From: a bacterium
GTDB taxonomy: Bacteria; CSSED10-310; JAJRTK01
DNA length: 17,061 nt
Direction of reading: 5' to 3'
Assembly (NCBI GenBank): GCA_024278345.1
Contig: JAJRTK010000340.1
Coordinates: forward strand, 1-17,061
The notes below the pieces were generated by a model. It searched no databases and was not told where the DNA came from. It was given only the letters and a program-made list of their open reading frames with translations. Made by a program: the position numbers and the translations under genes. Shown one piece after another: positions 1-17,061 of the stretch (its first letter is position 1; each line of letters begins with the position of its first letter).

Positions 1-1179
1 CGCTGTCCCCGGTCCCCAGGCAGGGCTTTGCCCTGCACCCACCAGGGAGTGACCTCCCTGGACCCACGTTCTTGTACGCTGCGCGTCTTTCTCTTTGTTT
101 TGTTGCGTGTCCCGGCTTAAGTGGATACCCCCCGAAACCATGTCAAATTCCAGAGCCAAGAGCGCCAAGGCGGCCTTCCCACTGCTGTCGATCCGCGGCT
201 CAGGGCAACTGGAAAAGAGTTGCAGGCAGGCAGCCGGACCCAACTCCAGAGCCCCGCGAATCACCTGGCAATCGCTGAATTTTGGCCCGCGTCCCCAGCT
301 CCCCAAGGCGCCGGACAGCCAGAGCGCTCTGGGAGAGGCCCCCATCCCCCTGCGCCGCAGCCGGGCAAGTGCCCTGGAACGCCAGCGCCGCCCCGAAGGC
401 AATGGAGGCAAATCCAGGTCCCGCTCCACGCCTGACCCGAGCTTCCCGTCCTCGCCAAGAAATCCCGCGGCTCGGAGCTCCGCCATCCGCCGGCGGTGAT
501 TTGCCCGGCTCAATCCGCGGAGGGTCGATAGCTTGAGGGTCGTTCCCAAGAAAAGTGCCTGGGCCAGATAGCACCGGGCATGATAGCCGATGCCCCCTGC
601 GGCGCCGCCACTTCCCTCGCCCCTTCTCCGCGGGGGATTCAAACCAAGAGGCCGGCCTTCCGTGGCCACGATCCCGATCTTCTGGAGATCGGGAGGAATC
701 TGCCCTCTGCTCTCAGCCTCCAAAATAATGATGAGCGGAAGATGGATCTGTCCCCCCTGAAGAAACCTCAACAACAGGCCCCAGACAGGAGACCGCAGCT
801 CCTTCGCGGAGCAAAGGACCAGCGCCGGGCGCCCTCGAAGAAGCGGCGCCACAGCCCTTTGCAGGTAGCGAGCCGCAAGAGCGGAAAACCCAAGCCAAAG
901 GGTTTCCAGGCGAAGATCATCTTTCGCTGGCAAGGGGAGGTCACAGCCCGCCACCTGAAGCAACAGTTCCCGAAGCGGCCCCAATTCGTCCCACGGCCGT
1001 GGTGGTTGAAGACGCAGCAAGGGAAACCCACACTCCCGTAGCCCAGCCCGGAGCGACCAAAGTTGGCCGGACTCGCCGTGAACGGCGAAAACGGATCCCC
1101 GGCCCTCGCCCAAAGCCTGCCAGAGGTTTTTCTGAAACAGAGGGAAACTCGCCGCGTCCAGAAGAGAGGGAAGTCTCAT
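1..1179 (-). CDS. Degenerate AAA/STAND-like ATPase, incomplete at window edge
   Basis: This frame opens with an ATG that overlaps the stop of the upstream lipoprotein gene (ATGA) and has no stop down to position 1, giving at least 393 codons and continuing outside the window. Residues about 30-45 (FAVHGESGQLWSLRAGL) sit where a P-loop would be in predicted ATPases of the AAA_16 type but lack the GK[ST] signature. Residues about 125-165 (RPALVLCSAKELRSP, then LPLIIILEAESRG) resemble the Walker B and sensor region, again without the acidic residues. A pseudo-ATPase is therefore my inference from pattern, not a firm family match. Third codon positions stay GC-rich to about position 150. The last 40 or so codons run through a dispersed repeat, so the true C-terminus, or a frameshift before it, is uncertain. 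The overlap suggests translational coupling to the lipoprotein. Confidence 0.5.
   Translation of the reverse strand, partial: MRLPSLLDAASFPLFQKNLWQALGEGRGSVFAVHGESGQLWSLRAGLRECGFPLLRLQPPRPWDELGPLRELLLQVAGCDLPLPAKDDLRLETLWLGFSALAARYLQRAVAPLLRGRPALVLCSAKELRSPVWGLLLRFLQGGQIHLPLIIILEAESRGQIPPDLQKIGIVATEGRPLGLNPPRRRGEGSGGAAGGIGYHARCYLAQALFLGTTLKLSTLRGLSRANHRRRMAELRAAGFLGEDGKLGSGVERDLDLPPLPSGRRWRSRALARLRRRGMGASPRALWLSGALGSWGRGPKFSDCQVIRGALELGPAACLQLFSSCPEPRIDSSGKAALALLALEFDMVSGGIHLSRDTQQNKEKDAQRTRTWVQGGHSLVGAGQSPAWGPGTA
11..128. repeat. Dispersed repeat, left copy
   Basis: This stretch contains the hairpin GCAGGGC-TTT-GCCCTGC at 20-36, then CACCCACCAGGGAG, then a GTACG...GCGTCTTT...TTTGTTTTG stretch and GTGTCCCGGCTTAAGTGGATAC at the end. 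The same ordered blocks recur in the same orientation at 16779-16922. It overlaps the open end of the leftward ATPase-like frame, so that frame may be non-coding here. Confidence 0.7.
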
Positions 1180-5579: not shown

Positions 5580-5636
5580 GTTCTAGTGCTCACTGGAAAA
5601 GCAGTTCTCCGGCAGTCCTGTAGCCTTGCTTCCTGG

Positions 5637-5788
5637 GGGACCTATCAAATTGTCGTGTTTTTGCTTTACAACTTTCTTCGCCGAAACGGTGGCACCGGCA
5701 TCTTGCCGGTGTAGCGCCCTCCGGCTGCACGGAGCCGGGAAGGAGGCTCGCCCCGCGGTGATGTTGTCAACCGGATCTGATAGATCCC
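5637..5788 (+). mobile_element. MITE copy A (152 bp) with 8-bp target duplication CTTCCTGG
   Basis: The left end reads GGGACCTATCAAAT. The right end reads ACCGGATCTGATAGATCCC, its imperfect inverted repeat. The flanks 5629-5636 and 5789-5796 are both CTTCCTGG. It shares both ends, a TTTTTGCTTTACA block and the central hairpin CACCGGCATCTTGCCGGTG with the copies at 10722 and 16570, but the rest of the interior differs. It has no coding capacity, so it must have been moved by a transposase elsewhere. It overlaps the last 22 bases of the radical SAM gene and supplies that gene's stop codon. Confidence 0.92.
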
Positions 5789-7494
5789 CTTCCTGGCCCA
5801 TTTCGCCTTTCCGCCAAGAGGGGAGCTCGTTCGGCCTGCCGTCCTTCGACCCCGATCCTGTACTGTCGCTCCAAGCGTTTGCGAAGATGAGGGCTCATCA
5901 AGTGATCCCACGGAAGCGGCCCTCCCACCTGGGTCTGAGCCTGCAGCATCTCCTCCACCAAGTGGGAATGTTGCCGAAAGCTCGCCTTCCAAGGCTGCCC
6001 GCCTTCCGCCACCGACTCCACCAGGAGGCTCGAGCGCCGGTCGCCTCTTGAGAAGATCATCTGGAGGGGCGCCAGGTTGAGCGCGCCGAGTTTCACGCGC
6101 ACTCCTGGAAGCCCACACAGGCCCTTCTTCAGGCGCTTGGCCCGCTGTCGCAGGATTTTTGGAGCGCAGAGAGGTGCCCACTGAAAGGCTGTCTGCGGTT
6201 TCGGAATAAAGGGGTTGATGCTCACCTCAATTCGGGTCCCGCGGTCGAGCTGGCGGCGCTCACGGTGGATCTTGGCCACCAGATCCAAGGTGGACTCGAC
6301 TTCCCAGTCGCCCTCCGTGGGCACTCCATACATGAAATAGAGCTTGAGCGCGGGAATCCTTGCTTCCGCCGTCCAGCGGGCCACATCCAGGACCCGCTCG
6401 TTGGGATAGTGCTTCCCCAGGGCTGCCCGGAGAGCCACATCCCCCGATTCCGGCGCGATGGTCAAGGTTCGGACGCCGGTGAGGGCCGCGGCCTCCACCA
6501 TCCAGGGCGCCAAGTCCTCAATCCTCACCGAAGGGAAAGAAAAGGAGCCCTTTTGGGATCGGAGGGCGGTGAGGATCTCCCGAATTCCGGGATGTGCGGT
6601 GACCGACGGACCCACGAGACCCACGCGCCCCGTGAGCTTGAGGCCACGCTCCGCCAATTCCAACACTCGGGGAACCGGTAAGTTTCGAACGGGGTTCTGC
6701 GTCGTCTTCACCGAACAAAAGCGGCATCGCGCCGGACAGCCTCGGATGATCTCAATGTTGAAGAGGTGTCCGAACACCGTATGAGGAGTGACAATTCGCG
6801 TGTAAGATGGCGCCTGTTCCAGGTTTTTCAGGCGGACGCGGCGCAAATGCCCTCGGAAGCCGCCGGGCTCACGGCTGGCGACGATCACCGCTGGATCGTG
6901 GAGGGATGGCACATAAAACCCGGCGGCTTGGGACGCCAGCTCCTTCAGGAATTCTCTCCGGCTGCATCGCCCGGCAACCCGATCCTCCAGCAAATCAAGG
7001 AACGTCGGCACCATGGGTTCTGCTTCACCAAGGGCGATGATATCCATGAAGTCAGCCACCGGCTCGGGGTTGAGATAAGCTGCCGAACCGCCCATGAGCA
7101 CAAGGGGATCATCTTCGGTGCGCTCCCTTTGGCGGACAGGAATCCGTGCGAGCCTCAGCAAGCGAACGATGTTGGGAAAGTCGTTCTCGAAGGGAACCGA
7201 GAAAGCCACCACGTGAAAATCTTGCACCGCCCTGTTGGTTTCCAGAGTGCGGAGCATGCCGCGCCCAAAGCGGGCGTCGTTGAGGCAAGCCGATTCACGG
7301 GGGAGAAAAAAACGCTCGCAGACCACCCCTTCGTAGGAGTTTAAGAGAGCATAGACAGCTTGAAATCCCAGGTTCGACATCCCGACTTCGTAAGTGTTGG
7401 GGAAGGCGAGGGCAATGCGGATCTTGCCGCCATGATCCTTGACGATGGCTCCTCGCTCCGCCTTCAGGAGCTCCTGTCTATGTGGTCTTTCCAC
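5767..7494 (-). CDS. B12-binding-type radical SAM protein (TIGR03960-like)
   Basis: This gene encodes 575 residues. The GTG start at 7494 is supported by AGGAAGGA six bases upstream. Residues about 20-190 form a domain like the B12-binding fold seen in this family (IRIALAFPNTYEVGMSNLGFQ, then GGSAAYLNPEP and IIALGEAEP). The radical SAM core begins at about residue 245, with the 4Fe-4S motif RGCPARCRFC (Cys253, Cys257, Cys260), then VGLVGPSVTAHPG, TIAPESGD and KLYFMYGVPTEGD. This matches the TIGR03960 type, often followed by a DUF2344 partner; that partner is not seen here. The substrate is unknown. The last seven residues (RGSIRSG) and the stop come from an inserted mobile element. Without it the protein would end in 15 different residues, stopping at 5583. 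Confidence 0.93.
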   Translation of the reverse strand: MERPHRQELLKAERGAIVKDHGGKIRIALAFPNTYEVGMSNLGFQAVYALLNSYEGVVCERFFLPRESACLNDARFGRGMLRTLETNRAVQDFHVVAFSVPFENDFPNIVRLLRLARIPVRQRERTEDDPLVLMGGSAAYLNPEPVADFMDIIALGEAEPMVPTFLDLLEDRVAGRCSRREFLKELASQAAGFYVPSLHDPAVIVASREPGGFRGHLRRVRLKNLEQAPSYTRIVTPHTVFGHLFNIEIIRGCPARCRFCSVKTTQNPVRNLPVPRVLELAERGLKLTGRVGLVGPSVTAHPGIREILTALRSQKGSFSFPSVRIEDLAPWMVEAAALTGVRTLTIAPESGDVALRAALGKHYPNERVLDVARWTAEARIPALKLYFMYGVPTEGDWEVESTLDLVAKIHRERRQLDRGTRIEVSINPFIPKPQTAFQWAPLCAPKILRQRAKRLKKGLCGLPGVRVKLGALNLAPLQMIFSRGDRRSSLLVESVAEGGQPWKASFRQHSHLVEEMLQAQTQVGGPLPWDHLMSPHLRKRLERQYRIGVEGRQAERAPLLAERRNGPGRGSIRSG

Positions 7495-7600
7495 AAAATG
7501 TCCTTCCTGCCGTGGATATCATGGTGCGGCCCCATGGGATCCCAACGGCCAACCGACAAAAAGAAAGAAAACCCAACCCACTGGCGAATCCTTCGTGAAA

Positions 7601-7618
7601 AGTGGAACCAATTCCACT
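7601..7618. promoter_or_regulatory. Perfect inverted repeat, possible operator
   Basis: AGTGGAA-CCAA-TTCCACT is a 7+4+7 perfect inverted repeat. It ends 11 bp before the -35 box of the outer-membrane protein promoter, a position typical of an activator site. The protein that might bind it is unknown. Confidence 0.45.
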
Positions 7619-7629
7619 GCGCAAGCGTG

Positions 7630-7658
7630 TTGACAAAGCAGGCCCATCCACATAATTT
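7630..7658 (+). promoter_or_regulatory. Sigma70-like promoter
   Basis: A consensus TTGACA (7630-7635) is separated by exactly 17 bp from TAATTT (7653-7658). It lies 72 bp upstream of the beta-barrel protein start at 7731 and in the same direction. Transcription would begin near 7665. Confidence 0.7.
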
Positions 7659-7675
7659 GGCTACGCCATGCCGCT

Positions 7676-7689
7676 GGAGGCTCGCCTCC
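7676..7689. repeat. Leader palindrome GGAGGC-TC-GCCTCC
   Basis: This 14-bp perfect palindrome lies in the predicted 5' leader of the beta-barrel gene. It is close to the hairpin CGGAGGC-TCT-GCCTCCG at 16995-17011, so it may be a short dispersed repeat rather than a gene-specific control element. Confidence 0.45.
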
Positions 7690-7730
7690 TTGGCGACGGG
7701 CATGGATCACCACCCTACGCGAGGCGACGG

Positions 7731-8414
7731 ATGATTGCGATTTCGAGAACTCGAAGGGAATCGACTTTCGCCCTTTGGATCTTATCGGGGCTCCTCTTTT
7801 TCTCAGGCCCTGGAGCAACAAGCGCGGAAGCCGAGTCCTTTGCCGGTGTAAATGCAGGATACTGGATGCTCACGCAAACTGACGACCTCGATTCCATGTT
7901 TCTTGGTTCCCTGGAATCCGGCGCCTTCGATGGCGGTACCGTGGGTCTCCACGTTGGCCACTATTTTACGGCAAACCTGGGAGCGGAGTTGTCAGTGGAA
8001 GCCTATCTTCCAGGAAAATCCTTCGTGGTGGCCATCGACCCCGAACCGATTCTCGTTCCGGTCAAGACCTCTCTTGCACTCTATCCCATCTCGTTGTCGG
8101 CCCGTTACCGCCTCTGGCCGGAACGGCTCACTCCCGTGGCAACAGCGGGCGTCAGCCTCAATCCTTACGACTTCGATGTTGATTTTCCCGGGTTTCCTGG
8201 AACCGGAGTCCACAACACCGGGATCGAGTTTGGTTACCAATTCGGGATCGGAGCCGAGCTCCCTTTCTCACTTCGCTGGTCGGCAACATCGCTGCTCCTC
8301 TATAGAAGCATCGATATTTCCGTCGAGTTCCTGGACAGCGAGGGAACCCTTCAGGAGTTCAAACCCGACTTTTCAGGGCTGCAACTTCAGTTGGGATTTG
8401 CCTACCTTTTCTAA
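7731..8414 (+). CDS. Outer-membrane beta-barrel protein
   Basis: This gene encodes 227 residues. The ATG at 7731 follows GAGGCGACGG. Residues 1-34 form a signal peptide (basic MIAISRTRRES, hydrophobic ALWILSGLLFF, cleavage near ATSAEA). The mature part alternates short polar and aromatic strands (FAGVNAGYWMLTQ, GLHVGHYFTANLGAELSVEAYL, SLSARYRLWPERLTPVATAGVSL, FGYQFGIGAELPFSLRWSATSLLLY) and ends LQLQLGFAYLF. The terminal Phe is the hallmark of Bam-assembled outer-membrane proteins. Size and strand count suggest an 8-stranded OmpW/OmpA-like barrel. The ligand or transport role is unknown. It has its own promoter and is transcribed divergently from the radical SAM gene. Confidence 0.85.
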   Translation: MIAISRTRRESTFALWILSGLLFFSGPGATSAEAESFAGVNAGYWMLTQTDDLDSMFLGSLESGAFDGGTVGLHVGHYFTANLGAELSVEAYLPGKSFVVAIDPEPILVPVKTSLALYPISLSARYRLWPERLTPVATAGVSLNPYDFDVDFPGFPGTGVHNTGIEFGYQFGIGAELPFSLRWSATSLLLYRSIDISVEFLDSEGTLQEFKPDFSGLQLQLGFAYLF

Positions 8415-8469
8415 CACAAACTCAAGGGGAACTTGCAGCCCCACTGCCCTGCGCAATTCCCTTGGAAAC

Positions 8470-8494
8470 GATCCCGCTCTCGGCCCGCGGGATC
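8470..8494. promoter_or_regulatory. Hairpin in leader of the PTS IIA gene
   Basis: GATCCCGC (8470-8477) pairs with GCGGGATC (8487-8494) around a 9-base loop. It ends 20 bp before the PTS IIA start and 56 bp after the barrel stop begins the gap. There is no T-run, so it is a weak terminator candidate at best. It could instead shape the mRNA leader. Confidence 0.4.
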
Positions 8495-8514
8495 CTACAA
8501 TTCGGTGGAAAGTC

Positions 8515-8976
8515 ATGGATAACAAAGCGTTAGCAGATTTTTTCGACGCCGAGCTTTTCTTTTTCGATCTCGACGTCAAGTCGAAGCCGGAGCTCTTCCG
8601 AAGACTGGTGGAGCTCCTGCACGAAAAAGGCAAGATCGGAAACAAAAACGTTATTCTTCAGACAATTCTCGCTCGTGAAGAACTAGGGAGCACCGGCCTT
8701 GGCCAAGGCGTTGCCGTTCCACATTCACGCTCGCTGATGACAAAAAACCTGATTCTAGTGGGCTGCCGAACAAAAGAGCCTCTGGATTATGCTGCCCCGG
8801 ACGACATCGGTGTTCGGCTCGTCTTTCTGATCCTGGCACCGCCGCAAGATCCAGCGAACCAGTATTTGCCTGTTCTCGGGAAGCTCGTGGAATTCGTGAG
8901 CCATGAAGAAATCCGGAATAAGCTTCTGGAGATCGGCACCTTCGAGGAATTCAAGAACCTCTTACTGGGGGAATAA
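8515..8976 (+). CDS. PTS EIIA type-2 (PtsN-like) domain protein
   Basis: This gene encodes 153 residues covering a single PTS_EIIA_2 domain. The phosphorylatable histidine is His70 in GQGVAVPHSRS. The usual surroundings are also present: ILAREELGSTGLG before it, VRLVFLILAPPQDPANQYLPVLGKLVEFV after it, and a final helix FEEFKNLLLGE. Family members accept phosphate from HPr/NPr and in PtsN (EIIA-Ntr) regulate nitrogen, potassium or stress functions. No sugar permease lies nearby, which favours a regulatory PTS-Ntr-like role by inference. I chose the ATG at 8515; a TGGAAAG precedes it. The stop is 2 bp from the zinc-ribbon gene start, so the two are co-transcribed. Confidence 0.9.
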   Translation: MDNKALADFFDAELFFFDLDVKSKPELFRRLVELLHEKGKIGNKNVILQTILAREELGSTGLGQGVAVPHSRSLMTKNLILVGCRTKEPLDYAAPDDIGVRLVFLILAPPQDPANQYLPVLGKLVEFVSHEEIRNKLLEIGTFEEFKNLLLGE

Positions 8977-8978
8977 AC

Positions 8979-9326
8979 ATGCCGATAGTTCCAGCACTGG
9001 AAACGGTCATTATCCTACAGGATCTCGACCTCATGATCGCCGAGGTCAACGACGCCCAGTCGTCCAAGACCATCGCGGACATGGGATTCAACATCGACAA
9101 TCTCGACAAGCTCGAATCCGCAAGAAAAGAGCTTTTGGAAAAACTCGACGACTCTATCTTGCGCCTCTACAACCGGCTTAGCCGCCGATACTCCCACCGG
9201 GTCGTGCCCGTCCAGAACAATATCTGCCTGGGCTGTTTCATGACCCAGCCGACCCGCTTTACCGACACCGGCAATACTCAGCTCAGGACTTGCCAATCCT
9301 GCAACCGGATTCTCTATAAGATCTAG
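8979..9326 (+). CDS. Short C4-type zinc-ribbon protein (zf-RING_7 like)
   Basis: This gene encodes 115 residues. The start is 2 bp after the PTS IIA stop, with GGGGGA serving as ribosome site. Residues about 8-70 are helical and charged (LESARKELLEKLDDSILRLYNRL), a short coiled-coil-like hairpin. Residues 76-115 are a C4 zinc ribbon with CLGC (Cys83, Cys86) and CQSC (Cys105, Cys108), ending NRILY, as in the zf-RING_7 family. Those proteins are usually about 240 residues with a long coiled coil; this one is less than half that length. Nucleic-acid or protein binding is plausible, but no function is established. It belongs to the PTS IIA-zinc ribbon-selA run. Confidence 0.85.
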   Translation: MPIVPALETVIILQDLDLMIAEVNDAQSSKTIADMGFNIDNLDKLESARKELLEKLDDSILRLYNRLSRRYSHRVVPVQNNICLGCFMTQPTRFTDTGNTQLRTCQSCNRILYKI

Positions 9327-9334
9327 AGGCACCG

Positions 9335-10708
9335 GTGCAAGAACCGAGCAAACCCTCCAGCCAGCATGCTGTACTCCGGAAGCTCCCGGCTATCCACCGA
9401 TTGGCGGCTCTCCTCGACAACGTGGATGGCACGGTCGCTTGCCGGGTTGCTCGCGATTGCCTCTCCGCCGTGCGCCGCGACCTCCTCTCCGGAGAGGCCG
9501 CGGAAGTGCCTTCCTTGCATGAGCTTGCCTGGCAATGCCGTACTCTTTTGGACCAAGGTCTCAAGCCCTCTCTCCAGCGGGTGATCAATGGGACCGGCAT
9601 CCTCCTCCACACCGGGCTTGGCCGCGCACCAATTCATCCGGAGGCGGTCGAAAGTGCAAGGCGGGCCATGACTGGCTACGCGAACCTTGAGATCGACCTC
9701 AAAACAATGGCGCGTGGCGAAAGGCAGAGCCATCTCCTCCCCCTCCTCCGCCGCCTTTCCGGCTCAGAGGACGCCCTCGTTGTCAACAACAATGCCGCCG
9801 CCGCCCTTCTGGTTCTCGCGACCCTCTGTAGCGGTCGCGAAGCGATCCTCAGCCGTGGCGAGCTCGTGGAAATCGGCGGCGGCTTCCGGATTCCCGAGGT
9901 CATGCGCCAAAGCGGGGCGATTCTTCGGGAAGTTGGGACCACGAACCGCACCCATCTTTCAGATTATAAGGAGGCCATTGGCGGAAAAACTGGCCTACTC
10001 TGCAAGGTCCATCGCTCCAACTTCGACCTGGTTGGACACGTCGCGGAAGTCTCCATCGAGCAACTGGCGAGGCTGGGGAAACGAACGGGAATTCCGGTCT
10101 ACTTCGATGCCGGGAGCGCTTCCGTCACGCGCCTCCATTCCTTGGAGCCGACCTTGGAGGATCTCGCCAACAGTGGCATCGACCTCGTCTCCCTCAGCGG
10201 AGACAAAAGCCTCGGCGGCCCCCAAGCCGGGATCATCCTTGGCCGCCGCAAACTCCTTGAGCAGCTTCGAACTCATCCCCTGGCCCGGGCCTTTCGGATC
10301 GGAAAGGGGACTGTGTCGACCCTGGAGAAAACCCTGGCCCTCTACCAAGCGGGCAGAGCAGAAGAGATTCCGGTGGTCGCCATGGCCCGGGCAACAGAAG
10401 AAGAGCTGCGCGAAAGAGGCGCACGCATCACCGCCGGGGACTTTGGAGAGATTCGCATCCGCCCGGTTCCCTCCGTGGCCCACCTGGGAGGTGGAAGCGC
10501 ACCCCAGGCCACCTTCCCGTCGGTCGCCCTGGCCCTGGAACACGCCAGATTCGGGCCCGACGCTCTCAAACACCGGCTCGCCACCGCTGCCACGCCGATT
10601 CTCGGGCGAATCCATGAAAATCGCCTACTTTTGGATCTAAGAACCGTCCTCCCCCCGGAGGATGCCCTCATACGCCAGACCCTGCTAACAGTTGGGCTAG
10701 GCAAATAA
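9335..10708 (+). CDS. selA: SelA, L-seryl-tRNA(Sec) selenium transferase
   Basis: This gene encodes 457 residues, close to E. coli SelA (463). It converts seryl-tRNA(Sec) to selenocysteinyl-tRNA(Sec) using selenophosphate and PLP in the cytoplasm. The PLP lysine is Lys291 in LVSLSGDKSLGGPQAGI. Other signatures are the N-terminal LPAIHRLAALLDN, VINGTGILLHTGLGRAPI, VVNNNAAAALLVL, REVGTTNRTHLSDYK and KVHRSNFDLVGH. The GTG start at 9335 has TAGAGG five bases upstream and lies 8 bp after the zinc-ribbon stop. The usual partner selB is not downstream; a mobile element follows 14 bp after the stop. Presence of SelA implies the organism makes selenoproteins. I see no obvious in-frame UGA selenoprotein in this window. 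Confidence 0.97.
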   Translation: MQEPSKPSSQHAVLRKLPAIHRLAALLDNVDGTVACRVARDCLSAVRRDLLSGEAAEVPSLHELAWQCRTLLDQGLKPSLQRVINGTGILLHTGLGRAPIHPEAVESARRAMTGYANLEIDLKTMARGERQSHLLPLLRRLSGSEDALVVNNNAAAALLVLATLCSGREAILSRGELVEIGGGFRIPEVMRQSGAILREVGTTNRTHLSDYKEAIGGKTGLLCKVHRSNFDLVGHVAEVSIEQLARLGKRTGIPVYFDAGSASVTRLHSLEPTLEDLANSGIDLVSLSGDKSLGGPQAGIILGRRKLLEQLRTHPLARAFRIGKGTVSTLEKTLALYQAGRAEEIPVVAMARATEEELRERGARITAGDFGEIRIRPVPSVAHLGGGSAPQATFPSVALALEHARFGPDALKHRLATAATPILGRIHENRLLLDLRTVLPPEDALIRQTLLTVGLGK

Positions 10709-10721
10709 GCTGGGCGGGGAG

Positions 10722-10875
10722 GGGACCTATCAGATCCGGTTGACAAGTCCACGCACGAACGGAACCCACCGTTCAATTCCGTGAGTCCCGTCCAGCCCGC
10801 CACCGGCAAGATGCCGGTGCCACCAGGGCGGCGCCGCGGAGTGTAAAGCAAAAACGCGGGGATTTGATAGGTCCC
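10722..10875 (-). mobile_element. MITE copy B (154 bp) with 8-bp target duplication GCGGGGAG
   Basis: In the window orientation it starts GGGACCTATCAGATCC and ends GGATTTGATAGGTCCC. It is inverted relative to the other two copies. The flanks 10714-10721 and 10876-10883 are both GCGGGGAG. Its reverse complement matches the copy at 16570 with three substitutions in 154 bp by eye. It fills most of the gap between selA and the convergent protease gene, and its hairpins could help end transcription from both sides. Confidence 0.95.
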
Positions 10876-10929
10876 GCGGGGAGTATGCCTGGAAGGCGGC
10901 CCCGCCCACGAACCAGAGTTTTCCACCAC

Positions 10930-12057
10930 TCAACGGACTCCCGCGGTCCTCGTGGCTGGCGCGTTGATAATGTCGGCGATCTCCGGAAGAATCAGTTCCA
11001 TGCGTACCCCTTGGTTCCCCTCCGTATCCGAACACCCACCAAAGTGGTGGAGACCGATTACATGGCCGTTTCCATCGAAGACAGGAGAACCAGAGCTTCC
11101 ACCGGCCGTCTCCGCTTGGTAGCTGAGGTCCGTATCCGGAGCCCTTCCCTCAACCTTGGTCAAAAGCACAACGTCTTCGGAAACCTTCTTGGGGTAGCCG
11201 TGAGGATGTTGAATGACAAAGAGATCTTCCCCGACCGTGAGAGGTCGATCCGTCAGAGTGAGATGTTGACCCGGATAACCATCCATCTGGAACAACGCGT
11301 AATCAAGCTCATAATTGTATTTGACCAACTGGGTACAACGCAGCATCGGCCCCATCACCCCCCGAGTCGCGGAACAATCAGGGTCCTCTCGCTTGAAGTA
11401 AACCTCGTAACTGTCGCACTGGGCCTGGTTGTGATCCGAAAAGCAATGCTCGTTGGTCAGCAGGTGCCCGTCCGCGGAAACGACGGAACCCGAACAATAG
11501 TAAACACCCCCTGACTCCTTGACGAAACGCAGGTGCGCCACGGCCCCTTTCAAATCAGGGGTCAAATACGAACCCGGGCCACTCAAGTTCCCGGCACAGG
11601 CTACGCCCGTATAGTCGTTGCCGTTCCCGGGACAGGTCGATTCGATCTGGAACGGATCCGCGAAACCTCGAGCCACGCGATCAACTGTGAAAGAACCCGT
11701 CCCCCTTGACTTGAAATCAAGGATCACCGTGTCTCCCGGCACCGACATGGCCCAAAACGATCCCGTCTCCCGGATCCCTTTTCCATCAAAAGTCTCTAAA
11801 GCCTTGTAGCCGCCGTCTCGAACGGTTAGACTTTCGCCGGCACCAAGGGCAAAGTCTGTGAAATGGAGCTTGACAAACCCAGAATCCGGCTCCACCACCA
11901 CGAATTCTCGCCGTTCGCTTCCATTTCCAAGGATCTCAACGGCATCCGGACGAGCGGAATCTACAAACAGACCATCGACGACCTCCCCGATCTTCTCTTG
12001 AGCCAAACAAGGCACGGCAGCAAAAAGCAACATCACGGCCAACACTTTTACTCGCAT
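10930..12057 (-). CDS. Secreted trypsin-like serine protease (S1 fold)
   Basis: This gene encodes 375 residues. The ATG at 12057 is preceded by GAGAGA. Residues 1-19 are a signal peptide (MRVKVLAVMLLFAAVPCLA, cleavage before QEK). Residues about 40-130 form a beta-rich N-terminal region (REFVVVEPDSGFVKLHFTDF, then ESLTVRDGG and FKSRGTGSFTVDRVARGF) that resembles a CUB-like domain. The protease part runs from about residue 165. The inferred triad is His204 in LLTNEHC, Asp252 in YELDYALFQ and Ser322 in AETAGGSSGSPVF. TNEHC in place of TAAHC, together with many cysteines, resembles lysyl-endopeptidase-like bacterial enzymes. It is probably a secreted degradative enzyme of unknown specificity. 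It is convergent with selA. Confidence 0.9.
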   Translation of the reverse strand: MRVKVLAVMLLFAAVPCLAQEKIGEVVDGLFVDSARPDAVEILGNGSERREFVVVEPDSGFVKLHFTDFALGAGESLTVRDGGYKALETFDGKGIRETGSFWAMSVPGDTVILDFKSRGTGSFTVDRVARGFADPFQIESTCPGNGNDYTGVACAGNLSGPGSYLTPDLKGAVAHLRFVKESGGVYYCSGSVVSADGHLLTNEHCFSDHNQAQCDSYEVYFKREDPDCSATRGVMGPMLRCTQLVKYNYELDYALFQMDGYPGQHLTLTDRPLTVGEDLFVIQHPHGYPKKVSEDVVLLTKVEGRAPDTDLSYQAETAGGSSGSPVFDGNGHVIGLHHFGGCSDTEGNQGVRMELILPEIADIINAPATRTAGVR

Positions 12058-12428
12058 CTTCTCTCAACTCTTTCGCTTGAGTAAAGTCTCGCACAATCAA
12101 CATGCATGGCCCTCAGCTAGAGCAAGATCCGAGCCAAACTCAAAAAAACCATAAAACATCACAATGGCCGGTCATCCTCTCCTCGCTCTAGAGTTTCATG
12201 CAGGGGCAACTCCCAAAAACCGTGACTCTTGGATTACGGCTTGTGACATCTAACTTCAGCTCGTGCGGAACTTCACCCGAAAACGGAGACCATGCCCGAT
12301 TCCACCGGCCCTCCAGAGATTCCCTGAAAGATCTTTCTTCGGTCGCGACCGAGCGCCTTCTCAGTCGGGATCCGAGTTCTAATTTTTCAGTCCATCGTCA
12401 GGAATTTGCATCTCGTGAGATAGCCTGC
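12058..12428. other. Intergenic region with two adjacent palindromes
   Basis: This 371-bp gap lies between the end of mtnA and the start of the protease gene; both genes are read leftward. It is locally richer in A and T than its surroundings. I see no convincing gene, RNA or terminator. The notable structure is the pair of perfect palindromes at 12326-12352. Confidence 0.6.
12326..12352. promoter_or_regulatory. Two adjacent perfect palindromes, possible operator
   Basis: GAAAGATCTTTC (12326-12337) and TCGGTCGCGACCGA (12339-12352) are perfect 12-bp and 14-bp palindromes separated by one base. They lie about 270 bp upstream of the protease start and 77 bp beyond the mtnA stop. They could bind dimeric regulators or form hairpins; no family is recognised. 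Confidence 0.4.
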
Positions 12429-13469
<1,041 letters not shown>

Positions 13470-13581
13470 GTTTTTGTCCTCATCATCAAGAGAGCGGTGC
13501 GCCCGAGCCCAAGACCCTCGGCGCCGCCGAAACCCGCCCCCGGGAAAGCCCGAGCGCGGCGACTGAGAATCGGAGGCTCTG

Positions 13582-13614
13582 TAGCACATTTGGGTCGCTC
13601 TGTGCTAAAGCGAC
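13582..13614. promoter_or_regulatory. Two interleaved inverted repeats
   Basis: TAGCACA (13582-13588) pairs with TGTGCTA (13601-13607). GTCGCT (13594-13599) pairs with AGCGAC (13609-13614). The order is 1-2-1'-2'. They lie in the region shared by mtnA and the beta-synthase gene, 82 bp before the latter's start. They could be overlapping operators or two mutually exclusive hairpins in a leader RNA. Confidence 0.4.
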
Positions 13615-13695
13615 GGGACGGATCACGCTTACGCCGAGACTTTGTCTACGGTCAGTCCCGAATCGGCAAGTCCAGCAGAAAAACGGAGAGCCACC

Positions 13696-15102
13696 ATGTC
13701 TGATGCCAACACGACGATGGAATCCGGTGAAATCCAGTTTTACGACAACATCATGGAGACGATGGGCGACACGCCCCTCGTAAGGCTTAGGGCGATCAGC
13801 CGGGGAACTCCACACCTGGTCCTTGCCAAGCTCGAATCGTTCAATCCCGGTGGCAGCGTCAAAGACCGGGTGGGACTGAGTATCATCGAAGCCGCTGAAA
13901 AATCCGGAGACCTCAAACCCGGCGGCACCATCGTCGAAGCGACGTCGGGCAACACGGGAGTCGGGCTGGTGATGGCCGCCGCTCTCCGCGGCTACAAGTG
14001 CATCTTCACGGTTCCCGACAAGCAAAGTCAGGAGAAAGTGCGCCTCCTCAAAGCCTACGGCGCCCAAGTGATCGTCTGCCCCACTTCCGTCCCGGCGGAT
14101 CACCCGAATTCCTATTACGAAATCGCTCGCCGCAAGAGCCTCGAAACACCCAATGCCATCTTGGCCAACCAGTATTTCAATCCGGCAAATCCCGAGGCCC
14201 ACTACCGGTCCACCGGCCCCGAGATCTGGAATCAGACGGCGGGCAAGATCGACATCTTCATCGCCGGGGCCGGAACCGGCGGGACCTTGAGCGGCGTTGG
14301 GCGCTACCTGAAGGAACAGAATCCCGCCATCAAGATTATCGGTGTCGATCCCGAGGGCTCCATCCTCCGCGATTACTTCTATTACAAGAAGATCACCGTC
14401 GCCCATCCCTATAAGATCGAAGGGATCGGCGAAGACATTATCCCTGGAACCATGGATTTTTCCGTCGTCGATGAATTCGTGACTGTCTCCGACCGCGAGG
14501 CCTTCATCCTCACAAGGGCCCTTGCCCGGGAGGAAGGAATCCTCATGGGCGGCTCCGCCGGGGCGGCATTGGCCGGAGCCGAGAAGTACATCAAGAATAT
14601 CACCGACAAGAAGGTCGTGGTTGTCCTGCTCCCCGACACCGGCGAGCGGCACCTTTCGAAGGTCCACAACGACGACTGGATGGAAACCAACGGCTACTTC
14701 CTTCCCGAGAACATCACTCTTGCCTACATCCTGGAGCACAAGCAGGAACCGATTCCCGATCTCGTCTTTGTCTCCACCCATACCACCGTCGAGGAGGCCC
14801 TGGCCCGCCTGCGAAGCTTCAACATCTCCCAAATGCCGGTTCTGGAAAACGAACACGCGGTGGGCAAGGTGACTGAAAACCATCTCATCCGGCAGGTCAT
14901 CGAGAGCGCGGACAGCCTCTCCAAACCCGTCCAGCAATTCCTTGAACCCGGGCTGCCCATTCTGGAAGCCGCCACGAGTATGGAGGAGGCGACGGCTCAA
15001 CTTGGCCGGAATAGCGGCGCTATTTTGGTTCGTAGGGACGGCAAGCTCATGGGCATTCTCAGCCGCTTCGACTTCCTGGATTACCTGGCCCAAAAGCGCT
15101 GA
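13696..15102 (+). CDS. cbs: Cystathionine beta-synthase with C-terminal CBS-domain pair
   Basis: This gene encodes 468 residues. The ATG at 13696 is preceded by GGAGAG with seven-base spacing. It condenses homocysteine and serine to cystathionine, a PLP reaction of reverse transsulfuration. The catalytic domain covers about residues 12-330: MGDTPLVRL, PLP lysine Lys56 in FNPGGSVKDRVG, substrate loop EATSGNTGVGL, phosphate loop AGAGTGGTLSG and LMGGSAGAAL. Residues about 345-468 hold two CBS motifs (VFVSTHTTVEEALARL...MPVLENEHAVGKVTE and LEAATSMEEATAQLG...ILVRRDGKLMGILSRFDFLDYL). In human CBS this region binds S-adenosylmethionine as an allosteric signal. There is no heme-binding N-terminal extension. 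Related O-acetylserine-dependent enzymes are possible, but the downstream gene supports this call. Confidence 0.9.
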   Translation: MSDANTTMESGEIQFYDNIMETMGDTPLVRLRAISRGTPHLVLAKLESFNPGGSVKDRVGLSIIEAAEKSGDLKPGGTIVEATSGNTGVGLVMAAALRGYKCIFTVPDKQSQEKVRLLKAYGAQVIVCPTSVPADHPNSYYEIARRKSLETPNAILANQYFNPANPEAHYRSTGPEIWNQTAGKIDIFIAGAGTGGTLSGVGRYLKEQNPAIKIIGVDPEGSILRDYFYYKKITVAHPYKIEGIGEDIIPGTMDFSVVDEFVTVSDREAFILTRALAREEGILMGGSAGAALAGAEKYIKNITDKKVVVVLLPDTGERHLSKVHNDDWMETNGYFLPENITLAYILEHKQEPIPDLVFVSTHTTVEEALARLRSFNISQMPVLENEHAVGKVTENHLIRQVIESADSLSKPVQQFLEPGLPILEAATSMEEATAQLGRNSGAILVRRDGKLMGILSRFDFLDYLAQKR

Positions 15103-15181
15103 CCCAGTAGCTCCGGGTGGCGGAACCCACGGCAAGGCTTCAGACAACTCCCGTCTTTTCACTGATTTACGTTCCGTTCGC

Positions 15182-15222
15182 GGCGGCGGCAATCCGTCCG
15201 CCGCCACTCACCGTTCCATCGC
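15182..15222. repeat. GC-rich hairpin repeat, copy 2
   Basis: GGCGGCGG (15182-15189) pairs with CCGCCGCC (15198-15205) and is followed by ACTCACCGTTCCATCGCC. Stem and tail resemble the element at 3949-3985. It lies in the 220-bp gap between the two transsulfuration genes, where it could lower read-through or mark a repeat insertion. Confidence 0.5.
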
Positions 15223-15322
15223 CCTCGGACCAAGCTTCATGCCCGAAAAGCAGGCCACAACCAAGCTCCATGGGAACCTCTCAACCCAAGAAACCGCTTC
15301 AACCACCAAGGATCCGTTTGTC

Positions 15323-16465
15323 ATGGGCTTTTCCACTGACGCCATCCACGCCGGACACGGCATCGACCCGGTGACTGGCGCCGTCGTCACCCCCCTTCAC
15401 TTGACCACGACCTACGCACAGGAAGAGCCCGGCCACCACAAGGGTTACGATTATTCCAGGACGATCAACCCAACCCGCCAGGTACTGGAGCAAAACCTGG
15501 CGGCACTGGAAAAGGGAACATGGGGCCTCTGTTTCGCCTCGGGCATGGCTGCCATGTCGTCCCTCTTCCAGACCCTCAAGTGCGGAGAGAAAGTTGTGGC
15601 ATCGGACAATTGCTACGGAGGTACGTACCGCGTTCTCCGAAAGGTGTTCGCCCACCAGGGTATTGCCTCTGAGTTTGTGTCTACCCAGGATTTAGAGGCT
15701 CTGGAAGAGGCCATGGACGATTCCACTCGTGTGGTTCTGGTGGAAACGCCTACAAACCCAAATCTGGGGCTTTCCGACATCCGCGCAATCGCCGATCTGA
15801 TCCGGGGCCGCCAAGTGATTCTGTGCGTTGACAACACCTTTGCCACCCCCTACTTGCAGCGGCCGCTGGAGCTTGGGGCGGACCTTGTGATCCACAGCAT
15901 GACGAAGTACCTTGGCGGCCATTCTGACGCCATGGGAGGGGCCCTCATCGGATTGAGCCCGGAGCTAAGAGACAAACTCGCCTTCATCCAAAACGCCCAT
16001 GGAGCGATCCTCTCCCCCTTTGAAAGCTGGATGATCCTTCGAGGGATCAAGACCCTGGCTGTCCGCATGGACCGGCAGTGTAAGAGCGCCCTTGAGATTG
16101 CCCACTACCTGGAGGATCATCCCAAGGTTCAGAAAGTCTACTTTCCCGGTCTGAAAAGCCACCCGCAGCACGATTTGGCCCTGAGCCAAATGCAAGGTTT
16201 CGGAGGCATCGTCAGCTTCGACACCGGAAGCCTCGACTCGGCCACGAAGTTCTCCGCTGCTCTGAAGATCGGGGTGTTGGCGGAAAGTCTCGGTGCCGTG
16301 GAAACCCTTGTCAACCACCCGGCCATCATGACCCACGGTGCCATCCCCGAGGCGGATCGGCTCCGATCCGGCATTACCGCCGGGCTTCTCCGCATCTCCG
16401 TGGGCCTGGAAGATGTCGAAGACCTTCTAGCGGATTTTGCCGCGGGCCTGGACGCCATGGGCTAA
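15323..16465 (+). CDS. Cystathionine gamma-synthase/gamma-lyase (Cys/Met PLP enzyme)
   Basis: This gene encodes 380 residues, the usual length for MetB and CGL. I chose the ATG at 15323 because MGFSTDAIHAGHGIDPVTGAVVTPLH is the typical N-terminus and AAGGA lies ten bases upstream. An ATG at 15239 would add 28 residues and lacks a ribosome site. PLP lysine Lys195 lies in VIHSMTKYLGGHSDAMGG. Other signatures are YDYSRTINPTRQVLE, FASGMAAMSS, CYGGTYR, VETPTNPNLGLSDI, CVDNTFATPYLQ and ESLGAVETLVNHPAIMTH. Motifs alone do not separate the synthase, which makes cystathionine, from the lyase, which cleaves it to cysteine. The adjacent cystathionine beta-synthase favours the lyase and cysteine formation, by inference. 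Confidence 0.93.
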   Translation: MGFSTDAIHAGHGIDPVTGAVVTPLHLTTTYAQEEPGHHKGYDYSRTINPTRQVLEQNLAALEKGTWGLCFASGMAAMSSLFQTLKCGEKVVASDNCYGGTYRVLRKVFAHQGIASEFVSTQDLEALEEAMDDSTRVVLVETPTNPNLGLSDIRAIADLIRGRQVILCVDNTFATPYLQRPLELGADLVIHSMTKYLGGHSDAMGGALIGLSPELRDKLAFIQNAHGAILSPFESWMILRGIKTLAVRMDRQCKSALEIAHYLEDHPKVQKVYFPGLKSHPQHDLALSQMQGFGGIVSFDTGSLDSATKFSAALKIGVLAESLGAVETLVNHPAIMTHGAIPEADRLRSGITAGLLRISVGLEDVEDLLADFAAGLDAMG

Positions 16466-16554
16466 GTACCGGAGTGGGTCTCCACGCAAGGCGGGACATT
16501 CCCGGGACTGTGGAATCGAAAGCGTCCGGGCAACGCCTCGCTGTCGCTTGGCGG

Positions 16555-16756
16555 GTCACGTTTGCGTGAGGGACCTATCAAATCCCCGCGTTTTTGCTTT
16601 ACACTCCTCGGCGCCGCCCTGGTGGCACCGGCATCTTGCCGGTGGCGGGCTGGACGGGATTCACGGAATTGAACGGTGGGTTCCTTTCGTGCGTGGACTT
16701 GTCAACCGGATCTGATAGGTCCCTTGCGTGACTTGAAGGGTCACGCCTCGCGTGAC
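16555..16756. repeat. Tandem palindromic repeats, first one split by a MITE
   Basis: The second unit is intact: GTCACGC-CTC-GCGTGAC at 16740-16756. The first unit would read GTCACG-TTTG-CGTGAC if the element at 16570-16723 and one copy of its target duplication were removed. The two units would then lie side by side, eight bases apart. Confidence 0.7.
16570..16723 (+). mobile_element. MITE copy C (154 bp) with 8-bp target duplication TTGCGTGA
   Basis: It starts GGGACCTATCAAATCC and ends GGATCTGATAGGTCCC, an inverted repeat with one mismatch in 16 bases. The flanks 16562-16569 and 16724-16731 are both TTGCGTGA. The interior holds TTTTTGCTTTACA, the hairpin CACCGGCATCTTGCCGGTG and a second inverted repeat, GAACGG/CCGTTC type. 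It is nearly identical to copy B. It lies about 100 bp after the cystathionine gamma-synthase/lyase stop. Confidence 0.95.
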
Positions 16757-16778
16757 TCGGCGGTCGTCCGGGGATTCC

Positions 16779-16922
16779 ATCCCCTGGCAGGGCTTCGCCC
16801 TGCATCCACCAGGGAGCTCGCTCAACTTCCCGTTGCAACAAAGGGCAACGGGATCCCAGCCCACATTCATGTACGACGCGTTGCGTCTTTGTTTTGGCGG
16901 GTGTCCCGGCTTAGGTGGATAC
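16779..16922. repeat. Dispersed repeat, right copy
   Basis: It has the same block order as at 11-128: hairpin GCAGGGC-TTC-GCCCTGC (16787-16803), CATCCACCAGGGAG, then GTACGACGCGTTGCGTCTTT, TTTTGGCGGGTGTCCCGGC and TTAGGTGGATAC. It carries about 25 extra bases in the middle, including an 8-bp-stem hairpin. Confidence 0.7.
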
Positions 16923-16968
16923 GGCCTCGGTCATGGTACCGGCCACGGTGCAGATTTCAGACGCCGCC

Positions 16969-17038
16969 CCAGGGCTTCCAGCCCTGGAACCCGGCGGAGG
17001 CTCTGCCTCCGGACCTCCGCTGGGAGCGCCGCTCCCAG
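16969..17038. repeat. Array of three hairpins with 3-base loops
   Basis: CCAGGGCT-TCC-AGCCCTGG (16969-16987), CGGAGGC-TCT-GCCTCCG (16995-17011) and CTGGGAGC-GCC-GCTCCCAG (17020-17038) follow each other closely. All stems are perfect. The look is of a REP/BIME-like palindrome cluster. Confidence 0.75.
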
Positions 17039-17061
17039 ACCCACGCCAGGGAGCCAGCTCC

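What the first reader, a model, noticed from the sequence alone, without database searches (positions are those of the whole stretch)
5637..16723. A MITE family with 16-bp terminal repeats and perfect 8-bp target duplications, three copies in 11 kb
Copies at 5637-5788, 10722-10875 and 16570-16723 share termini starting GGGACCTATCA. Each has its own identical 8-bp flank pair: CTTCCTGG, GCGGGGAG and TTGCGTGA. Three independent perfect duplications are very unlikely by chance and show transposition rather than simple REP spread. No transposase is encoded. Several insertion-sequence families make 8-bp duplications, including ISL3, IS256 and ISAs1 types, so the driver cannot be named from this window.
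Basis: partly seen in the sequence, partly recalled or inferred. Interest (0 to 1): 0.75.

Follow-up and report, generated by a model that had tools for sequence, protein, structure and literature searches.

The report
Recently active 154-bp mobile DNA family
Three short hitch-hiking DNA elements in this stretch belong to a family of more than a hundred near-identical copies that recently jumped around the genome of a little-known bacterium using an enzyme made elsewhere; such elements are known in many bacteria, so this is a new family of a familiar kind.

Summary
It is a true MITE family. The own genome (6.06 Mb MAG, 550 contigs) holds roughly 120 copies in two 154-bp subfamilies, A and B, each copy about 2% from its consensus. 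Of 80 distinct copies with both flanks, 58 have a perfect 8-bp duplication and 12 one mismatch; 20,000 mismatched flank pairs gave none perfect. Empty sites are shown: window copy 3 sits in another repeat whose other copies carry TTGCGTGA once, and one A copy sits inside a B copy. Copies avoid genes (20% genic against 80% for random points). No transposase is encoded. Nearly all exact ends were followed; none leads into a longer transposase-bearing element. Transposases of 8-bp-duplicating families are present only as decayed or contig-truncated pieces (ISL3, IS1595, ISKra4, ISAs1); the ends that could be read differ. So the driver remains unnamed: lost, unassembled or unbinned. The central palindrome is part of the element, not an independent REP, and no convincing RAYT was found. 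One contig of a Myxococcota MAG carries the same repeats; no other hit among 84,980 species genomes. Verdict: new member of a known kind.

The parts
5637..5788 (+). MITE copy 1, subfamily B, 152 bp
   Evidence: 16-bp ends, no coding capacity
5629..5636 (.). left 8-bp duplication CTTCCTGG of copy 1
5789..5796 (.). right 8-bp duplication CTTCCTGG of copy 1
10722..10875 (-). MITE copy 2, subfamily A, 154 bp, inverted relative to copy 3
10714..10721 (.). left 8-bp duplication GCGGGGAG of copy 2
10876..10883 (.). right 8-bp duplication GCGGGGAG of copy 2
16570..16723 (+). MITE copy 3, subfamily A, 154 bp, inserted in another repeat family; empty site known
16562..16569 (.). left 8-bp duplication TTGCGTGA of copy 3
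   Evidence: present once in the empty site L102 3057-2866
16724..16731 (.). right 8-bp duplication TTGCGTGA of copy 3
5767..7494 (-). radical SAM ORF whose last codons and stop lie inside copy 1 (575 aa; 583 aa if the flanks are joined)

Best explanation
A MITE family: 154-bp non-autonomous DNA transposons with 16-bp terminal inverted repeats (GGGACCTATCARATCC in consensus) and a further inner motif TTKACA near each end. A DDE transposase supplied in trans from an autonomous insertion sequence binds both ends, excises or copies the element, and inserts it at staggered cuts 8 bp apart; host repair of the gaps makes the 8-bp duplications. Shown: ends, duplications, empty sites, recent amplification, intergenic location, absence of a coding sequence and of any longer element with these ends among those examined. 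Inferred: the DDE chemistry, supply in trans, and that the autonomous partner is lost or missing from the MAG. The most likely partner type is one of the families that make 8-bp duplications and start with GG (IS1595, ISL3 or ISKra4 class), which are present here in decayed or truncated form.
For: Perfect 8-bp duplications in 58 of 80 copies, one mismatch in 12, control 0 perfect in 20,000. Empty site for window copy 3 with TTGCGTGA once, and A-in-B nested copy with CCGCCCCA once in the uninterrupted B element. Ends occur 214 times with at most 1 mismatch, reversed control 0. Fixed length of 154 bp and median 98.1% identity to consensus in both subfamilies: recent burst. 20% genic against 80% of random points. 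No exact end that was followed leads into a transposase-bearing element.
Against: No autonomous partner found; without it the transposase family and the in-trans step are inference. About nine copies lack matching flanks (3 or more mismatches), as expected from recombination between copies or decay, but not proven for each. A fresh burst with no partner in the assembly needs the partner to be lost, unassembled or unbinned.
Confidence: 0.95

Rival explanations
1. REP-like palindromic repeats spread by a RAYT (Y1) transposase or by gene conversion.
For: Each copy holds a central palindrome GGTGGCACCGGCATCTTGCCGGTG with a compensated pair in older copies, and the palindrome can expand into tandem arrays (L071, L097, L120). 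The same 24-mer occurs in three places on two viral contigs.
Against: In the fetched DNA it occurs 103 times inside the MITE and 5 times outside, all 5 in arrays next to MITE ends. The only Y1_Tnp match is below the curated cut-off. Y1 transposition makes no target duplications (established knowledge), whereas these have 8-bp duplications.
Confidence: 0.02
2. Internal-deletion derivatives of the resident ISL3 or IS1595 elements, moved by them (a narrower version of the best explanation, not exclusive of it).
For: Both families make 8-bp duplications and start with GG (established knowledge); fragments of both lie in the genome. The IS1595 end GGCTCTATATGCGATCC has a faint likeness to GGGACCTATCARATCC.
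Against: The ISL3 end here reads GGCTCTTCGCCATC and the IS1595 end GGCTCTATATGCG; neither matches, and subterminal sequence is not shared. The copies are broken: a second MITE interrupts ISL3 and a half-deleted MITE lies in one IS1595 gene.
Confidence: 0.15
3. A cis-acting regulatory or terminator element kept by selection at gene ends, duplicated with its surroundings.
For: Strong hairpin fold, intergenic location, copies 1 and 2 at or within about 15 bp of gene ends.
Against: No bias between 3' and 5' gene ends (18 to 15, random points 45 to 41); flanks differ from copy to copy except for the 8-bp duplications; nested insertion of one copy in another.
Confidence: 0.02

Closest known systems
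Chunjie MITE of Geobacter uraniireducens (PMC10969869, citing Chen et al. 2008)
   Same: MITE with inverted ends and flanking repeats, dozens of mostly intergenic copies, recently active
   Different: 178-235 bp with variable length; ours is almost always 154 bp; ends were not compared here
MITEAba12 of Acinetobacter (PMC6382973)
   Same: Short (113 bp) recently active MITE with 16-bp ends; movement attributed to a resident IS acting in trans; 40% of copies with duplications
   Different: 9-bp duplications and an identified parent (ISAba12); here 8-bp duplications and no parent found
Correia elements of Neisseria and ERIC of enterobacteria (PMC10969869)
   Same: More than 100 short inverted-repeat copies in a genome
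   Different: Different size and sequence; Correia elements duplicate TA (own knowledge), here 8 bp
IS1595, ISL3 and ISKra4 family insertion sequences
   Same: 8-bp (ISKra4: 8 or 9) duplications and ends starting with G's (own knowledge); remnants in the same genome
   Different: The ISL3 and IS1595 ends readable here do not match the MITE ends; no ISKra4 remnant has a GGGACC-like end near it

Membership tests
MITE | Short (under about 600 bp) and without a transposase gene | tested here: met
   152-154 bp; reading frames show no transposase
MITE | Terminal inverted repeats | tested here: met
   16-bp ends
MITE | Target-site duplications of fixed length | tested here: met
   58 of 80 perfect at 8 bp, control 0 of 20,000
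MITE | Many near-identical copies at unrelated sites, with empty sites | tested here: met
MITE | Shares its ends with an autonomous element that moves it in trans | tested here: inconclusive
   no longer element with these ends among the ends followed; the MAG is 87.9% complete and fragmented, so absence is not decisive
ISL3-derived MITE | Ends shared with a resident ISL3 element | tested here: not met
   resident ISL3 end GGCTCTTCGCCATC
IS1595-derived MITE | Ends shared with a resident IS1595 element | tested here: not met
   resident IS1595 end GGCTCTATATGCG
IS256-derived MITE | IS256 (Transposase_mut) transposase in the genome | tested here: not met
   no match
ISAs1-derived MITE | Ends shared with a resident ISAs1 element | tested here: inconclusive
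   only a C-terminal fragment at the start of C373; no GGGACCTATC end follows its stop codon, but its true end is not fixed
ISKra4-derived MITE | Ends shared with a resident ISKra4 element | tested here: inconclusive
   only decayed pieces at C17, C481, C464, with no GGGACC-like end near them
REP/RAYT system | Stand-alone palindromes plus a RAYT (Y1) transposase | tested here: not met
   palindrome tied to the MITE; Y1_Tnp only below cut-off

The most novel reading that the evidence does not exclude
The elements are moved by a transposase of a family not among those tested (IS256, ISL3, IS1595, ISKra4, IS6/IS240, and DDE_Tnp_1 families such as IS4, IS5 and ISAs1), and the conserved central hairpin is a working part of transposition or of protection of host transcription.
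Probability: 0.12. Interest if true: 0.55.

Novelty: new member of a known kind. Interest (0 to 1): 0.3.

Why it matters
It is a clean, recently active MITE family in a sparsely sampled phylum, with internal empty sites that prove transposition without a sister genome. It also shows how short mobile repeats break metagenome assemblies: 42 of 192 contig ends examined (a set chosen for MITE content) and 4 of 70 in a less biased set lie inside a copy.

Tried and rejected
Whole-genome family searches for a driver: IS256 none, IS6/IS240 none, DDE_Tnp_1 only an ISAs1 fragment, ISL3, IS1595 and ISKra4 present without these ends. A promising junction of IS1595 sequence with a MITE at the start of C16 proved to be a half-deleted MITE inserted in the transposase gene. 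Self-comparison of 1.3 Mb for long repeats gave no transposase with these ends. An exact end in C142 (L126 2456) reads on as coding sequence and looks like a chance match. Viral contigs: no end-pattern hit. Genome contigs: one contig of a Myxococcota MAG with the same repeats, no autonomous element. 40 other genomes, 7 of them of the same phylum: none. Rfam on the window: none. A list of contig-end reading frames was drawn up but not scanned, because the batch scan would not list families matched by a single protein. IS66 and IS1 were not searched.

Full report
Check of the observation. All three copies, their ends and their 8-bp flank pairs are exactly where stated. Copies 2 and 3 are 98% identical and inverted with respect to each other; copy 1 is a diverged relative sharing ends and centre. 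The end motif is far above chance in the window (6 matches, mean 0.29 in shuffles).

The family in its genome. The window is contig C270 of a 6.06-Mb, 550-contig assembly, 87.9% complete. The 16-base end occurs 214 times with at most one mismatch and the reversed control never; exact ends number 51 plus 108. A less biased part of the genome gives 7 blocks in 343 kb, or about 120 copies per genome (a rough figure from a small count). Two subfamilies, A and B, are both 154 bp in consensus, with median identity of 98.1% to their consensus. They share both ends, the inner TTKACA motifs and a central palindrome. Older, diverged copies (L105, L109, L136) keep the ends and the palindrome with a compensated C-G to A-T pair.

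Transposition is shown. Of 80 distinct copies with both flanks, 58 have a perfect 8-bp duplication and 12 one mismatch; pairing left and right flanks of different copies gave no perfect match in 20,000 draws. Joining the flanks of window copy 3 with one copy of TTGCGTGA gives a sequence that aligns without a break at the junction to an unoccupied copy of the host repeat in L102, at 90% identity over 192 bases. An A element sits inside a B element in L066 with its own duplication; the joined B element differs at one base from the uninterrupted B element of L114. Joined flanks at other sites also match unoccupied repeats. Target sequences show no strong preference (50 duplications, 52% G+C).

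Where they sit. With a simple codon-usage gene caller, 11 of 54 copies lay inside a gene against 480 of 597 random points, with no preference for 3' over 5' gene ends. This fits selection against gene disruption. Copy 1 lies at the extreme 3' end of a radical SAM gene and supplies its stop codon: 575 residues instead of 583.

The driver. Unpaired exact ends among those fetched were explained by contig ends, nested or later insertions, or expanded palindromes, apart from one apparent chance match in coding sequence; none leads into a longer transposase-bearing element. A scan of the fetched DNA for diverged ends with perfect duplications up to 3.6 kb apart found only an old 130-bp copy and the nested pair. 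Some ends with one mismatch, and the exact ends beyond the listed 100, were not all followed. Profile searches of the whole genome found ISL3, IS1595, ISKra4 and ISAs1 pieces and no IS256 or IS6. The readable ISL3 and IS1595 ends differ; the ISAs1 and ISKra4 ends could not be fixed but no GGGACC-like end lies by them. The near identity of copies means the transposase acted recently; it is probably missing from this fragmented bin, or lost. That step is inference.

Distribution. None of 40 other genomes has the element. A scan of 84,980 species genomes with a specific 25-base end pattern, own and very near genomes possibly left out, gave one contig, assigned to a Myxococcota MAG (Dive96_bin1.27), which carries a B copy and other repeats of this genome at up to 96% identity. 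This is either misbinning of DNA from the same or a sister organism, or shared mobile repeats.

Comparison. It meets the tested criteria for a MITE, except that its autonomous parent is unknown. Comparable recently active bacterial MITEs are Chunjie (PMC10969869) and MITEAba12 (PMC6382973). It is not a REP/RAYT system. The finding is therefore sound, and a new family of an ordinary kind.

Noticed in passing
window 16917-17061 (approximate) and L106 335-535, L119 2873-3072: A second MITE-like family, ends GGCCTCGGTCATGGTACCGG, about 200 bp, with 9-bp duplications in some copies; one copy interrupts an ISL3 transposase gene.
   Followed up: partly
window 16477-16922 and L102 2866-3057: A third repeat family (GGTATCCACGCAAGGCGGGACA...) that hosts MITE copy 3; related sequence recurs at window 13-128.
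   Followed up: partly
window 5767-5788: Copy 1 supplies the stop codon of a radical SAM gene and replaces its last residues.
   Followed up: yes
L071 from 5640, L120 from 19653, L097 1-433: The central palindrome of the MITE has expanded into tandem arrays inside some copies, in L097 with compensated stem changes.
   Followed up: no
L052 1481-1837 (end of contig C78): Next to a MITE fragment, a palindrome is followed by what looks like the start of a group II intron.
   Followed up: no
L192 4900-5295: A contig binned as Myxococcota (Dive96_bin1.27) carries the repeat families of this genome, suggesting misbinning or transfer.
   Followed up: partly
L188 1-1116, L189, L191: Decayed ISKra4-type transposase genes; ISL3 is interrupted and IS1595 copies are broken or contig-truncated too.
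   Followed up: partly
L194-L196: The 24-base palindrome of the MITE occurs exactly in two viral contigs, in two of three places next to a second palindrome (ACAGGCTGGAAGCCTGTG), in a different setting without MITE ends.
   Followed up: no
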